Source: Alcanivorax sp. (GTDB lineage Bacteria; Pseudomonadota; Gammaproteobacteria; Pseudomonadales; Alcanivoracaceae). From it: a DNA stretch of 64,000 nt. Shown here in pieces: positions 40,203-49,576 of this stretch; the stretch's first letter is position 1; every line of letters begins with the position of its first letter. The notes beneath the pieces were generated by a model. The model had not been told where the DNA came from, did no database searches, and worked only from the letters and a program-made list of their open reading frames with translations. Made by a program: the position numbers and the translations under genes. The DNA is taken from assembly GCA_022449455.1 (NCBI GenBank), contig JAKUPL010000011.1:1-64000 (forward strand). Reading direction: 5' to 3'.

Positions 40203-40292
40203 GGAGAGGTGGCAGAGTGGTCGAATGCAGCGGTCTTGAAAACCGCCGAGGATTTGCGTCCTCCGTGGGTTCAAATCCCACCCTCTCCGCCA
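40203..40292 (+). tRNA. tRNA-Ser(UGA)
   Basis: This is a 90-base class II tRNA with encoded CCA. The acceptor GGAGAGG pairs with CCTCTCC, the anticodon loop CTTGAAAA contains TGA, the variable arm is long (GAGGATTTGCGTCCTC), and the T loop is GTTCAAATC. It reads UCA and UCG/UCU-type codons by modification. Terminator follows 9 bases after CCA. Confidence 0.97.
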
Positions 40293-41142: not shown

Positions 41143-41193
41143 ATGCTCGGAGGCAATGGTTATCCCCATAACGACGACTCCGGGAGAAATATC

Positions 41194-42225
41194 ATGGATC
41201 CCATCAGCTTCGCGGATATCTGCCTGCACCAGCTCAAGATGTCCGGCGTCCATGAGGGCGAGAAAGTGGTTGTCCTGACCCAGGGCAACGAACGACTGGA
41301 CTACGCCGACGCCTTCATGGCCGCCGGGCAAAAGCTTGGAGCCCGCATGTACCACATGCGTCTGCCGGCGCCGCCGCCCATGGGCGGCTGGGTGGTGGGC
41401 CAGACCGGCCTGGCGGCGCTGCCGGACGCGGTGGAAGCGCTCAAGCAGGCGGACATGCTGATCGACTGCATGTTTCTGCTGTTCTCCCCGGAGCAGATGG
41501 CGATCCAGGCCGCTGGCACCCGCGTGCTCACCGCCGTGGAGCCGCCGGAGCTGCTGGCGCGCATGCTGCCCTCCAAGGAGCTGCGCGAGAAAGTGGAAAT
41601 CGCCGGTGAGCTGCTCGCCAAGGCCAAGGTGATGCGCATCACCTCGCCCCACGGCACCGACGTGACCTACAAGCTCAATACCTACCCGACCATCATGGAA
41701 TACGCCTGCACCGACGAGCCGGGCCGCTGGGACCACTGGCCCTCCGGTTTCGTGTTCACCGGCGGCGACGACGACGGCGTGGATGGCCAGATCGTTGTGG
41801 CCCCTGGTGACGTGCTGCTGCCGCAGAACATGTACGTGCGCGACCCGATTACCTACACCATCGAAAAAGGCTGGATCACCGACATCCGTGGCGGCCTCGA
41901 CGCGGACCTGGTGAAGTCCTACATGGACAGCTTCAATGACGAGCGCGGCAACGGCATGAGCCACGTGGGCTGGGGCATGAACCCGGACGCCAAATGGCAC
42001 CGCATGACCCCGGGTGAGTTCCCCGGCGGCATGGGCATGGAGCCGCGCAGTTTCTACGGCAACGTGATGTTCTCCACCGGGCCCAACAACGAGCTGGGCG
42101 GCACTAACGACACCGCCTGCCATCTGGACATCCCGATGCGGGACTGCTCGCTGTTCCTGGACGACGAGCCGGTGGTCATCGATGGCGACATCGTGGTCAA
42201 GGAAATCCAGATGGAACGTCGCTAG
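41194..42225 (+). CDS. nicX: 2,5-dihydroxypyridine 5,6-dioxygenase
   Basis: This 343-residue extradiol-type dioxygenase of the NicX family opens 2,5-dihydroxypyridine to N-formylmaleamate. The signature blocks VEPPELLARMLP, YACTDEPGRWDHWPSGF, MSHVGWGMNPDAKWH and STGPNNELGGTNDTACHLDI match NicX. Metal ligands predicted from family knowledge are His257, His310 and Asp312; their spacing (53 and 2 residues) equals His265/His318/Asp320 of the P. putida enzyme as I recall it. GGGAG lies 8 bases before the ATG. No nicD, nicF or nicR is adjacent. A terminator follows. Confidence 0.9.
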   Translation: MDPISFADICLHQLKMSGVHEGEKVVVLTQGNERLDYADAFMAAGQKLGARMYHMRLPAPPPMGGWVVGQTGLAALPDAVEALKQADMLIDCMFLLFSPEQMAIQAAGTRVLTAVEPPELLARMLPSKELREKVEIAGELLAKAKVMRITSPHGTDVTYKLNTYPTIMEYACTDEPGRWDHWPSGFVFTGGDDDGVDGQIVVAPGDVLLPQNMYVRDPITYTIEKGWITDIRGGLDADLVKSYMDSFNDERGNGMSHVGWGMNPDAKWHRMTPGEFPGGMGMEPRSFYGNVMFSTGPNNELGGTNDTACHLDIPMRDCSLFLDDEPVVIDGDIVVKEIQMERR

Positions 42226-42689: not shown

Positions 42690-43712
42690 TCAACGCGTGA
42701 GGCGGGCGGCGAACGCCTGCAGCGCCTCGCGCCCCTGAATATCGTCGGCCAGCAGGGGCAGATGGTGGCGGGGCAGGGCGCCCAGGCGGGTGTCGATGTC
42801 CGCCAGATGGCGCTGCTCGCGTTCGCGGCGGGCGCGAAAGAAAGCGCCCTCGGCGTCGTCCGGCAGCACCCGATTGACGATGGCGCCGGCCACCGGGATG
42901 CCCGCTTCGGTGAGGCTGTGCACGGCCCGTTCGGTTTCCAGGATCGGCAGCTTTTCCGGGGTCAGCACGAACAGAAAGGCGCTGTGCGCCGCGTCCTGCA
43001 GCCGTCTCCGGGCGCGGTGGAAGCGGCGCTGGCGCTCCAGCAGCGGTGCCGCCAGACCCCGGGCGCGCTCGTCCAGGCCGTCCAGCTCCCGTTCCTCCGG
43101 TTCACCGGTCAGGCTTTCCACATCACGGCCCGGGCTCAAATGCCCCAGCACCTTGCCGAGCTGCTCACTGCGCCGGTTCTGGCGCAGCAGGCCCTCGGTC
43201 CAGGCGGCCATCACCTCGGGCAGACTGAGCAGCCGCAGGGTGTGGCCGGTGGGGGCGGTGTCGAACACGATCAGATCGTAGCGCTGGTCCTCGTCCATCA
43301 GGCTGGTGAGGCGCTCCAGCAGCGCCGCTTCCTGGGCGCCGGGGGACTGGCGGCTGAGGCGCAATTGGCGCTCCAGTTCCGGGCGCTGGTCGGCGGCGGC
43401 GAAGCGCGCCATGCGCGCGCGCACCGTTTCCAGGTGGGCGTCCACCTCCCGGTCCGGGTCGATTTCCAGACCGAACAGGTTCTCCGCCAGGGCGGTTTCC
43501 CGGTCGCCGATGTAGCGGCCGAAGGCGTCGGACAGGCTGTGCGCCGGGTCGGTGGATACCAGCAGCACCCGCCGGCCGCGCCCGGCGGCGGCCAGCGCCA
43601 GAGCGGAGGCGGTAGTGGTTTTGCCGACCCCGCCCTTGCCGCCGACCATCAGCAGGCGGCGGTTGTCGAGCAGGGTGGTGACGTTCAGGTCGGATTGGCT
43701 GGGTTCAGGCAT
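42690..43712 (-). CDS. ArsA/GET3-family ATPase in cstA operon
   Basis: This 340-residue protein carries a deviant P-loop GGKGGVGKTTTA (residues 24-35), the switch VSTDPAHSLSDAFG and the A-loop DTAPTGHTLRLLSLPE, all diagnostic of the ArsA/Get3 family. It has one ATPase domain, so it would dimerise. No arsenical operon genes are near; it is third after cstA and a small CC-terminated protein. I infer a targeting or membrane-protein maturation role for that operon, not arsenite export. Three bases separate it from the small gene. Confidence 0.88.
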   Translation of the reverse strand: MPEPSQSDLNVTTLLDNRRLLMVGGKGGVGKTTTASALALAAAGRGRRVLLVSTDPAHSLSDAFGRYIGDRETALAENLFGLEIDPDREVDAHLETVRARMARFAAADQRPELERQLRLSRQSPGAQEAALLERLTSLMDEDQRYDLIVFDTAPTGHTLRLLSLPEVMAAWTEGLLRQNRRSEQLGKVLGHLSPGRDVESLTGEPEERELDGLDERARGLAAPLLERQRRFHRARRRLQDAAHSAFLFVLTPEKLPILETERAVHSLTEAGIPVAGAIVNRVLPDDAEGAFFRARREREQRHLADIDTRLGALPRHHLPLLADDIQGREALQAFAARLTR

Positions 43713-43715
43713 GGT

Positions 43716-44000
43716 TCAGCAGCAGCGGAACTGGTCCAGGGGGGAATGGGGCAGGCCCATGCGGCGGTGCCAGTCGTGGAAACGGTCCAGCAGCAGCGGC
43801 TGCAGTTCCAGGGTGTACCAGCCCGCCGGGTTGGGGATGCCCAGGGTCTCGGCGAACACCAGCAGCATGAACAGGTCCTGCTCGTCGCGGCGGGCGCGGG
43901 CGATGGCGGCCCGGTAGGGGGCGTTGTAATACTCCGCCCCCAGCCGGCCCGCCTCCCGGGTCCAGCGTTTCAGCCGGCCGAGGATGCGCGGCCCGGTCAA
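43716..44000 (-). CDS. Small C-terminal di-cysteine protein between cstA and arsA-like gene (cory-CC-star type)
   Basis: This 94-residue protein ends ...LDQFRCC, two cysteines at the very C-terminus. The body is amphipathic (EAGRLGAEYYNAPYRAAIAR, QDLFMLLVFAETLGIPNP). I recall the name cory-CC-star for a small family in this position; the match is from memory. The only plausible start is TTG (43998-44000), which overlaps the cstA stop (TCTTGACC) and is preceded by a strong AGGAGGAGG. Translational coupling of all three genes is therefore likely. Cys93 and Cys94 could bind metal, form a disulfide or carry a lipid; unknown. Confidence 0.75.
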   Translation of the reverse strand: MTGPRILGRLKRWTREAGRLGAEYYNAPYRAAIARARRDEQDLFMLLVFAETLGIPNPAGWYTLELQPLLLDRFHDWHRRMGLPHSPLDQFRCC

Positions 44001-45676
44001 GACCGCACCTCCTCCTCGCGCAGCTTCTTGTGCCGGCGCAACGCGGCGGTGCATTCCAGGGTCACCAGAATGGCCGCCACCAGCACCACCAGATCCAGGC
44101 CCAGCAGGAACCAGTTCTCCTTCAGGTAGAAGCCCTTCAGCTGGATCAACAGCGCCAGCAGCGTCATCACCAGCAGGAAGATCAGCGGCAGCAGGGTGAA
44201 CAGGGTGGGGCGCCCGCGCCGCACCAGCATCACCGTCACCACCAGCAGGGTGAGCCCGGCCAGCAACTGGTTGGTGGTGCCGAACAGCGGCCAGATCAGC
44301 AGGCCGCCGGAGCCGTCCGCGCCGCCGGCGCCGAACGCCAGCACCAGGCAGCTGATCACCGCCAGGGCGGTGGCGGGGAACGGCTTGCGCATCCATTCCT
44401 GGTTATAGATTTCGCCCCACTCCTGGAAGATGTAGCGCTGCAGGCGCAGACCGGTGTCCATGGTGGTGCCGGCGAACAGCGCCGCCATCACGGTGAGCAG
44501 GGTGGCGGCCACCTCGCTGCTGAGGCCGGTGCCGGCGGACAGAATGCGCGCGCCACCATCGACGAAGGCGGTCAGGCTGCCCTGGCCGAAGGCGGAGTAC
44601 ACCGCCTGCCAGTCCGCCAGGGAGGCGAAGCCGGCGGTGGCGGCGATGATGGCGGCCAGGGCCAGGGCCCCTTCGCCCACCGCGCCGAAGTAGCCGACGA
44701 ACCGCGTGTCGGTTTCCTTGTCCAGTTGCTTGGAAGTGGTGCCGGACGCCACCAGCCCGTGGAAGCCGGAGATGGCGCCGCAGGCGATGGTCACGAACAG
44801 CAGCGGAATCATGGACGGGGTGTCCATGGGCAGGTCGGTGTTGATCATCGGCGCCACCACCGTGGGGTTGGCGATCAGCACCGCGGCGTAGAGCAGAATC
44901 AGGCCGACGAACAGCTGCAGGCCGTTGATGTAGTCACGGGGTTGCAGCAGCATCCACACCGGCAGCAGCGAGGCCACTGCGGCGTAGCCGAACAGAATCA
45001 GAATCCAGATCGCGTTGGCGGACAGGCCGGCGGTGGTTTCCGGCAGTGAGATCGGTACCTGCGGCCCCAGGAAGATCAGCCCGTAGAGGCAGGCCACGCC
45101 AATCACCGATACCAGCCCCAGGCCGATCATGCGGCGGTAGATCAGCTGGCCGATCACCAGCGCCACGGCGATGGCGCCCCACACCGGCACCACCGCCCCG
45201 GGGGTGTTGATCAGCAGCTTGGCGATGACCACGCCGAACACCGCGTTGACCATCAGCAGCACCAGGAAGATGACGATCATGAAGACGCTGCGGGCGCGGC
45301 CGCCGACCACTTCACCGGTGAGCGCGCCCACCGATTTGGCGCGGTTGCGGATGCTCGCCCAGATCGCCCCGGCGTCGTGCACGCCGGCGAAGAAGATGGT
45401 GCCCAGTACCACCCACAGGAAGGCGGGGAGCCAGCCCCAGATCACGGCGATGGCCGGCCCGACGATGGGCGCGGCCCCGGCCACGGAGGTGAAGTGGTGG
45501 CCCCACAGGACGAAACGGTTGGTGGGCACGAAGTCCACGCCGTCCTCGAATTCGTGGGCGGGGGTTTTGAAGTCGGGGTCGAGTTGGTAGACCTTGTTGG
45601 CGATGAAGCGGGAATAAATAAAGTAACCCGCCGCCATGCCGCCGAGGCCCAGTACCAGGAGCAGAATCGCACTCAT
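43997..45676 (-). CDS. cstA: Carbon starvation protein A family transporter (CstA)
   Basis: This 559-residue polytopic membrane protein has about 15 helices. Family blocks are FVPTNRFVLWGHHFTSVAGA, APIVGPAIAVIWGWLPAFLW, ISGFHGLVASGTTSKQL and WPLFGTTNQLLAGLTLLVVT. It is shorter than E. coli CstA (701 aa). Members take up peptides or pyruvate during starvation. It is divergent from gacA across 214 bases that contain GGGTC/GACCC inverted repeats. No two-component btsSR pair is adjacent. Confidence 0.9.
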   Translation of the reverse strand: MSAILLLVLGLGGMAAGYFIYSRFIANKVYQLDPDFKTPAHEFEDGVDFVPTNRFVLWGHHFTSVAGAAPIVGPAIAVIWGWLPAFLWVVLGTIFFAGVHDAGAIWASIRNRAKSVGALTGEVVGGRARSVFMIVIFLVLLMVNAVFGVVIAKLLINTPGAVVPVWGAIAVALVIGQLIYRRMIGLGLVSVIGVACLYGLIFLGPQVPISLPETTAGLSANAIWILILFGYAAVASLLPVWMLLQPRDYINGLQLFVGLILLYAAVLIANPTVVAPMINTDLPMDTPSMIPLLFVTIACGAISGFHGLVASGTTSKQLDKETDTRFVGYFGAVGEGALALAAIIAATAGFASLADWQAVYSAFGQGSLTAFVDGGARILSAGTGLSSEVAATLLTVMAALFAGTTMDTGLRLQRYIFQEWGEIYNQEWMRKPFPATALAVISCLVLAFGAGGADGSGGLLIWPLFGTTNQLLAGLTLLVVTVMLVRRGRPTLFTLLPLIFLLVMTLLALLIQLKGFYLKENWFLLGLDLVVLVAAILVTLECTAALRRHKKLREEEVRS

Positions 45677-49241: not shown

Positions 49242-49317
49242 GCGGGAATAGCTCAGTTGGTAGAGCACAACCTTGCCAAGGTTGGGGTCGCGAGTTCGAA
49301 TCTCGTTTCCCGCTCCA
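49242..49317 (+). tRNA. tRNA-Gly(GCC)
   Basis: 76 bases including CCA. Acceptor GCGGGAA pairs with TTCCCGC, discriminator T, anticodon GCC in CTTGCCAAG, T loop GTTCGAATC. It reads GGC and GGU, the dominant glycine codons in this GC-rich genome. Confidence 0.97.
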
Positions 49318-49328
49318 AGATTCAAAAG

Positions 49329-49354
49329 AACCTCGGTTCATACCGGGGTTTTTT
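49329..49354 (+). terminator. Putative intrinsic terminator between tRNA-Gly and tRNA-Cys
   Basis: AACCTCGG pairs with CCGGGGTT (one G-U pair) around a 6-base loop and is followed by six T. It sits 12 bases after tRNA-Gly and 15 before tRNA-Cys; no separate promoter is obvious for the next two tRNAs, so it may be a partial terminator. Confidence 0.6.
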
Positions 49355-49369
49355 ATTCCCCAGGTTAAC

Positions 49370-49443
49370 GGCGCGGTGGCAGAGTGGTTATGCAGCGGAC
49401 TGCAACTCCGTGTACGCCGGTTCGATTCCGACCCGCGCCTCCA
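49370..49443 (+). tRNA. tRNA-Cys(GCA)
   Basis: 74 bases with CCA. Acceptor GGCGCGG pairs with CCGCGCC, discriminator T, anticodon GCA in ACTGCAACT, T loop GTTCGATTC. Part of the conserved Gly-Cys-Leu cluster downstream of pgsA. Confidence 0.97.
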
Positions 49444-49489
49444 TTTCCGCTTCACCGGGCCGCGTTACGCAGGTAGCCTTTCCTGTTAC

Positions 49490-49576
49490 GCGGGTATGGT
49501 GAAACTGGTAGACACAAGAGACTTAAAATCTCTCGGCTTCACGGCCGTGCCGGTTCGAGTCCGGCTACCCGCACCA
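49490..49576 (+). tRNA. tRNA-Leu(UAA)
   Basis: 87 bases, class II with a long variable arm (TCGGCTTCACGGCCGT). Acceptor GCGGGTA pairs with TACCCGC, discriminator A, CCA encoded, anticodon TAA in ACTTAAAAT. Reads UUA/UUG. Confidence 0.97.

What the first reader, a model, noticed from the sequence alone, without database searches (positions are those of the whole stretch)
42690..45676. CstA / C-terminal di-cysteine mini-protein / ArsA-like ATPase operon
A nutrient transporter of the CstA family is fused in one coupled operon with a 94-residue protein ending in Cys-Cys and a Get3/ArsA-type ATPase. No arsenical genes are near. Get3-family ATPases deliver tail-anchored membrane proteins, so the operon could encode a dedicated assembly or regulatory complex for CstA, with the terminal cysteines acting as metal, redox or lipid anchor. 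Stop-start overlaps (TCTTGACC, 3-base gap) argue for fixed stoichiometry.
Basis: partly seen in the sequence, partly recalled or inferred. Interest (0 to 1): 0.75.

Follow-up and report, generated by a model that had tools for sequence, protein, structure and literature searches.

The report
Transporter operon with double-cysteine partner protein
A bacterial nutrient transporter is encoded together with a small helper protein that ends in two cysteines and with an ATP-splitting enzyme; this three-gene set was described in 2010, but comparison suggests that the two-cysteine tail is its most constant part, that an unrelated-looking helper carries the same tail, and that in one lineage the tail sits on the transporter itself.

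Summary
On the minus strand, cstA (559 aa), a 94-aa protein ending Cys-Cys and an ArsA/Get3-type ATPase (340 aa) form a coupled operon. It is not new: the small protein is NCBIfam NF041419 ('cory-CC-star'), and Castillo & Saier (2010, PMC2963123) described CstA-CstX-ArsA operons. Co-occurrence is very tight: the ATPase follows in 83 of 83 loci, cstA precedes in 82 of 83.

What the comparison adds: E. coli btsT-yjiX-yjiA has the same architecture (CstA-family transporter, small protein ending CC, P-loop NTPase) from other families. The dithiol tail is the constant part: 83/83 CC-star proteins end CC; of 73 YbdD/YjiX proteins 68 end CC and 5 CPC; and in one CstA clade without YbdD the transporter itself ends RCC (10/10), whereas 0/30 CstA from YbdD genomes do. 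No genome examined has both CC-star and YbdD (0 of 44).

Best reading: an accessory subunit brings a redox- or metal-active dithiol to the cytosolic side of CstA; the ATPase regulates or assembles it. Tail-anchored-protein delivery and a lipid anchor are poorly supported. No function was tested here, and the tail is not universal: 8 of 13 plasmid-borne CstA loci showed no dithiol partner.

The parts
43997..45676 (-). cstA: CstA-family transporter, 559 aa, short type, predicted APC/LeuT-like fold
43716..44000 (-). cory-CC-star (CstX) gene: 94 aa, TTG start, ends Arg-Cys-Cys-stop
   Evidence: NF041419 126.2 bits, cut-off 80; translation; 83 of 83 homologues end CC
43719..43724 (-). codons of the terminal Cys93-Cys94
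   Evidence: translation; invariant columns in A4, 60 rows
42690..43712 (-). ArsA/Get3-family ATPase, 340 aa, single domain, no cysteine
   Evidence: TIGR00345 265.8 bits; PF02374 245.7 bits; switch motifs invariant in 38 orthologues; Cys count
44006..44017 (-). Shine-Dalgarno-like stretch GAGGAGGAGGTG before the TTG start of the small gene, inside the end of cstA
   Evidence: sequence and position

Best explanation
The operon encodes a CstA-type symporter with a dedicated soluble accessory subunit and an NTPase. The CC-star protein (a long helix, a G-I-P-N turn, two shorter helices, then a flexible 13-residue tail ending RCC) docks on the cytosolic side of CstA and presents a terminal dithiol that CstA needs in order to transport; the dithiol acts as a redox- or metal-responsive element. 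The ArsA-type ATPase, probably as an ATP-switched dimer, controls the small subunit: loading, release or redox/metal state. Shown here: operon, invariance of the tail, presence/absence pattern, parallel with YbdD/YjiX + YjiA, the same tail on CstA itself in one clade. Shown by others in E. coli: YbdD is needed for CstA-dependent pyruvate uptake. Inferred: docking, the chemistry of the dithiol, the role of the ATPase, and that CC-star does for short CstA what YbdD does for long CstA.
For: Gene order cstA-CC-arsA in 82 of 83 loci, from Gammaproteobacteria to a Bacillota plasmid, and all three genes in 5 of 5 further genomes of the phylum sample. 83 of 83 small proteins end CC. In 94 relatives, 39 carry CC-star and the same 39 carry the short CstA; 8 of 46 genomes of the window's family lack both. 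E. coli btsT-yjiX-yjiA and cstA-ybdD: YjiX and YbdD end RCC. YbdD tails: 68 CC + 5 CPC of 73. Pyruvate uptake is 20% of wild type in a ybdD deletion, 13% in a cstA deletion, 25% in the double deletion (PMC5847655, passages). Ten of ten readable long CstA from genomes without YbdD end RCC themselves; 0 of 30 from YbdD genomes do; the ten are one clade (support 100) inside the YbdD-type CstA. The YbdD family has members ending Cys-Sec (PMC4607533, passages; NF033934 matched by 12 of 12 YbdD rows, below its cut-off in the one member shown), which argues for thiol chemistry. Switch motifs of the ATPase are invariant in 38 orthologues.
Against: Many CstA proteins show no convincing dithiol partner downstream: 11 short, 9 distant and 6 long rows, including four f46 proteins about 60% identical to the window's CstA; and 8 of 13 plasmid-borne CstA loci. 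So the tail is not universal. No significant homology between CC-star and YbdD (hhalign probability 0.5% and 1.5%), so equal function is an analogy. The cis tail is one evolutionary event, not ten; its join with YbdD-bearing f84 rows has support 80 only, in a quick tree with long-branch warnings. The exclusion of CC-star and YbdD is not significant in the even phylum draw alone (P 0.61). No complex could be modelled. The CC-star model is moderate (pLDDT 80, pTM 0.53).
Confidence: 0.5

Rival explanations
1. Biogenesis: the ATPase is a Get3-like chaperone that escorts CstA or the small protein to the membrane; the small protein is an adaptor.
For: The ATPase belongs to the Get3/ArsA subfamily with intact nucleotide motifs; coupled genes.
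Against: No cysteine in the window protein and no conserved cysteine column in 38 orthologues, Met-poor helical segment; CstA is polytopic and the small protein has no transmembrane segment (0 of 60 reach a mean hydropathy of 1.6 over 19 residues). At the two E. coli loci the companion is a P-loop GTPase or no NTPase gene, so no ArsA-type chaperone stands there.
Confidence: 0.2
2. Energisation: ATP hydrolysis by the ArsA homologue powers CstA transport, with CstX (CC-star) coupling the two, as proposed by Castillo & Saier 2010.
For: Operon association and matching trees in that paper (PMC2963123; passages, section 3.2 and tables).
Against: BtsT is called an H+/pyruvate symporter (start of the abstract of PMC7730263; gene name), so ATP need not drive it; a YjiA-type NTPase gene was found next to only 21 of 73 YbdD genes, and neither a YjiA- nor an ArsA-type gene at the ten cis-tail loci.
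Confidence: 0.13
3. Metal handling: the dithiol and the NTPase (ArsA type here, YjiA type in E. coli) load or sense a metal, and CstA activity is tied to metal supply.
For: YjiA belongs to a GTPase family with metallochaperone members (recalled; only names it a P-loop guanosine triphosphatase); CC and CPC tails are plausible metal ligands.
Against: The ATPase here has no cysteine to take over a thiophilic metal; Sec in place of Cys in the YbdD family points rather to redox.
Confidence: 0.12
4. The terminal Cys-Cys is a lipid-attachment site that anchors the small protein in the membrane.
Against: CPC variants in the YbdD family, Cys-Sec variants, and a like tail on CstA itself, which is already in the membrane. 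No bacterial C-terminal CC prenylation is known to me (recalled).
Confidence: 0.03

Closest known systems
CstA-CstX-ArsA operons (Castillo & Saier 2010, PMC2963123)
   Same: Same three genes, about 90-aa small protein, single-domain ATPase. Their ATPase cluster 18 lists Alcanivorax sp. DG881 and Idiomarina baltica OS145; both genomes are here as L069 and L067 with the gene order cstA-CC-arsA.
   Different: The passages and sections that I read do not mention the terminal Cys-Cys (0 matches for 'Cys' or YbdD in the find), and call CstX a single-TMS protein in archaeal operons; I find no transmembrane segment in 60 bacterial homologues.
E. coli cstA-ybdD and btsT-yjiX-yjiA
   Same: CstA-family transporter, small protein ending RCC, and (btsT) a P-loop NTPase in the same order.
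   Different: Small proteins of family PF04328 without detectable homology to CC-star; the NTPase is a YjiA-type GTPase, not ArsA; the CstA is the long type.
KCU-star / DUF466 selenoprotein (NF033934)
   Same: Small protein with a terminal pair of thiol/selenol residues.
   Different: Last residue is Sec (PMC4607533, passages); the family is YbdD, not CC-star.
Get3/TRC40 and ArsA ATPases
   Same: Sequence family and nucleotide motifs.
   Different: No CxxC, no ArsA cysteines, Met-poor helical part; the partner is a symporter-type permease.

Membership tests
NF041419 cory-CC-star | Score above curated cut-off | tested here: met
   126.2 bits against 80
NF041419 cory-CC-star | Terminal Cys-Cys-stop | tested here: met
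CstA-CstX-ArsA operon of Castillo & Saier | cstA, about 90-aa gene and single-domain arsA homologue together | tested here: met
   two of their cluster-18 genomes recovered as L067 and L069 with the same order
CstA transporters (PF02554) | Score above cut-off | tested here: met
   462.5 bits against 27
E. coli-type CstA (NF011590) | Score above equivalog cut-off | tested here: not met
   237.4 bits against 1188
CstA transporters (PF02554) | Pyruvate or peptide uptake | not testable with these tools
   needs an uptake assay
GET3/ArsA/TRC40 subfamily (TIGR00345) | Score above cut-off, P-loop and switch motifs | tested here: met
   265.8 bits against 135; motifs at residues 24, 55, 151; conserved in A5
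Get3 tail-anchored targeting factor | CxxC zinc motif of the dimer (recalled) | tested here: not met
   no Cys in the window protein, no conserved Cys column in 38 orthologues
Get3 tail-anchored targeting factor | Met-rich hydrophobic client groove (recalled) | tested here: inconclusive
   3 Met in residues 88-241 (mean 4.5 in 38 rows) against 14 in a stretch of 3zq6; a count only, no structure of the groove
ArsA arsenical ATPase | Cys113/172/422 (named in PMC2963123) | tested here: not met
   no cysteine
YbdD/YjiX (PF04328) | Profile match of the small protein | tested here: not met
   no Pfam match in the window protein; PF04328 not among the matches of 11 CC-star members at E up to 10
YbdD/YjiX (PF04328) | Remote homology to CC-star | tested here: inconclusive
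   hhalign P 0.035, probability 1.5%

The most novel reading that the evidence does not exclude
A large part of the CstA-type symporters is thiol-dependent: transport needs a terminal dithiol at the cytosolic mouth, which evolution has supplied in three ways (YbdD/YjiX, CC-star/CstX, or the transporter's own C-terminus), and a SIMIBI-class NTPase was recruited twice, as a YjiA-type GTPase and as an ArsA-type ATPase, to control that dithiol.
Probability: 0.35. Interest if true: 0.75.

Novelty: new member of a known kind. Interest (0 to 1): 0.5.

Why it matters
Why CstA-type pyruvate/peptide transporters need a 65-94-residue partner, and why an ArsA-type ATPase stands beside some of them without arsenic genes, are questions raised in print in 2010 and 2018 (PMC2963123, PMC5847655) that I found no answer to in the papers seen. 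Reducing the partner to its two last residues, found on three polypeptides, makes the question testable with one point mutation and one uptake assay. If the dithiol is redox-active, it would link uptake of a central carbon compound to thiol status.

Tried and rejected
Homology of CC-star and YbdD: hhalign with small and larger alignments, local and global, gave no significance. The forced full-length alignment lines up G-x-P, the F..R helix, R-x-G and RCC in order, which is suggestive only.

Known fold for CC-star: Foldseek against PDB gave nothing below E 3.3; a profile search of PDB sequences gave one match at E 1.9. CstA has no PDB sequence relative at E up to 1.

A selenocysteine form of CC-star: none seen; all 83 proteins end CC before their first stop.

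A third kind of dithiol partner beside CstA proteins that lack CC-star and YbdD: I looked for ORFs ending CC or with Cys near the end; apart from the cis tails nothing convincing. ORFs ending CC by chance, overlapping cstA in another frame or standing away from it (L200, L201, L221, L222), were set aside by eye.

Sampling of other phyla by the genome search: a species name was not accepted as centre and I did not pursue it; plasmid records were used instead. The genome-contig scan kept only the best 80 of at least 574 relatives, so the 83 loci lean to near relatives.

Selection: alignments used parts of what was held: CC-star A4 60 rows, ATPase A5 38 rows, CstA A6 34 rows, tree 84 rows. L060 and L067 were left out of A6 because the stated stretch ran over the stop at the very end of cstA (position of the stops); L084 was shortened to end before its stop. 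CstA of G186, G240 and G203 (L227) are cut by contig ends and were not counted in the cis-tail test. L055 lacks cstA because the contig begins there.

Correction: a count in my third notebook entry, YjiA beside 17 of 30 YbdD genes, was a miscount; the loci give 16 of 30 and 21 of 73. Four of the 73 loci have under 900 bases downstream, so 21 is a lower bound.
Full report
WHAT IS THERE. The finding is real. On the minus strand the window holds cstA (45676-43997), a 94-aa gene (44000-43716, TTG start) and an ArsA/Get3-family ATPase gene (43712-42690). The first pair overlaps by four bases, with a Shine-Dalgarno-like stretch before the TTG; the second pair is three bases apart with no obvious ribosome site. 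The small protein is NCBIfam NF041419, 'cory-CC-star', 126.2 bits against a cut-off of 80. The ATPase is TIGR00345, 265.8 bits against 135. Neighbours are a GacA-type regulator on the other strand, uvrC- and pgsA-like ORFs (names recalled from the sequence, not from a family search) and an ABM-domain gene.

IT IS A PUBLISHED OPERON. Castillo & Saier (2010, PMC2963123; passages, section 3.2 and the tables seen) reported 26 cases of CstA with an ArsA homologue, 24 of them with a small protein, CstX, and proposed that the ATPase energises CstA. Their ATPase cluster 18 lists Alcanivorax sp. DG881 and Idiomarina baltica OS145, which came back here as L069 and L067 with cstA, CC-star and arsA in a row. 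I infer that CstX of these genomes is the cory-CC-star protein. The link of a CstA transporter to a non-arsenical ArsA protein is thus correct but not new.

CO-OCCURRENCE. The genome-contig scan found at least 574 encoded relatives and kept the best 80, from Gamma- and Betaproteobacteria or unassigned Proteobacteria; with three plasmid loci that makes 83. The ATPase follows in 83 of 83 and cstA precedes in 82 of 83; the exception starts at a contig end. A Bacillota plasmid (Cytobacillus, L041) has the set with one extra 95-aa ORF between cstA and CC-star. Among 94 relatives, 39 carry CC-star and the same 39 carry the short CstA; 8 of 46 genomes of the window's own family lack both. In an even draw of 398 genomes of the phylum, 7 have CC-star, 67 YbdD (PF04328) and 189 CstA; all 7 and 66 of 67 also have CstA, and none has both CC-star and YbdD. 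That exclusion is not significant in the draw alone (about 1 expected, P 0.61); over both samples it is 0 of 44 CC-star genomes, most of them from the window's own family.

THE PARALLEL. In E. coli K-12 the order btsT-yjiX-yjiA is a CstA-family pyruvate symporter, a small protein ending RCC and a P-loop GTPase; cstA-ybdD is the same without the GTPase. Both NTPases belong to the SIMIBI class (recalled). YbdD is needed: its deletion leaves 20% of pyruvate uptake, a cstA deletion 13%, the double deletion 25% (PMC5847655, passages). Of the 73 YbdD matches of the phylum draw, 68 end CC and 5 end CPC. A YjiA-type GTPase was found close by in 21 of 73 and in 0 of 83 CC-star loci; no ArsA was found at the 73 YbdD loci. 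Profile comparison finds no significant homology between the two small families. PMC4607533 (passages) reports DUF466 (= YbdD family) proteins whose last residue is selenocysteine after a cysteine, and suggests redox activity; one plasmid record already names a YbdD 'CstA-like transporter-associated (seleno)protein'.

THE PARTS. CC-star is predicted as a helix 3-53, helices 58-62 and 67-81, and a coil tail 82-94 (pLDDT 80, pTM 0.53). No stretch reaches a mean hydropathy of 1.6 over 19 residues in 60 homologues, against the single-TMS label that PMC2963123 gives CstX in archaeal operons. The ATPase keeps the P-loop and switch motifs, has no cysteine (24 of 38 aligned orthologue stretches have none, no conserved column) and few methionines in the helical segment. 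Features that I recall as typical of Get3 are thus missing, and so are ArsA's cysteines.

WHAT SPEAKS AGAINST. The dithiol partner is not universal. No convincing CC-ending ORF stands downstream of 11 short, 9 distant and 6 long CstA rows (the nine distant ones were read with only about 0.3-0.5 kb downstream, and looked closely at 15 of the 26). Six long ones of these (L219-L223, L232) belong to genomes that have YbdD elsewhere. Four f46 CstA proteins, about 60% identical to the window's, have no partner. Of 13 CstA loci that I chose from 125 plasmid records (60 listed), five have a YbdD-like ORF ending CC and eight have none on the same strand, among them long ones in Lactococcus and Nonomuraea. 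So the tail is needed, if at all, only in part of the family.

VERDICT. Best explanation: CstA with a dithiol-bearing accessory subunit, and an ATPase that controls or assembles it (0.5). Rivals: Get3-like biogenesis (0.2), ATP energisation (0.13), metal handling (0.12), lipid anchor (0.03). The operon is known. The tail shared by YbdD, CC-star and one CstA clade was not in the passages that I saw of eight papers out of ten searches; no search was aimed at the cis tail itself, and most subscription papers are absent from that library.

Noticed in passing
L198:3102-4271 and L199:3054-4247: Beside CstA proteins that lack CC-star and ArsA in family f46, a 389-397-aa permease-like ORF on the same strand has a cysteine pair near its C-terminus (SACCG, SSCCASE). 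It did not show in L200, so it may be coincidence.
   Followed up: partly
L081:6415-8088: Natronospirillum has a second CstA gene directly after cstA-CC-arsA (72% identical to the window's CstA).
   Followed up: no
L041:4633-4920: A 95-aa ORF of unknown kind stands between cstA and CC-star on a Cytobacillus plasmid.
   Followed up: no
L224, L226, L228, L270, L279: YbdD proteins that end Cys-Pro-Cys instead of Cys-Cys: five of 73.
   Followed up: yes
window 41143-42225: A 360-aa ORF without any Pfam match at E up to 1 or NCBIfam match at E up to 0.01; it reminds me of NicX/M29-type metallo-enzymes (recalled, untested).
   Followed up: no
window 49242-49573: Three tRNA genes on the plus strand after the pgsA-like gene, and a single tRNA at 40203-40289.
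   Followed up: no
L040, L041, L042: The operon lies on large plasmids in Paracoccus, Cytobacillus and Pseudochrobactrum, so it can be carried outside the main chromosome.
   Followed up: no
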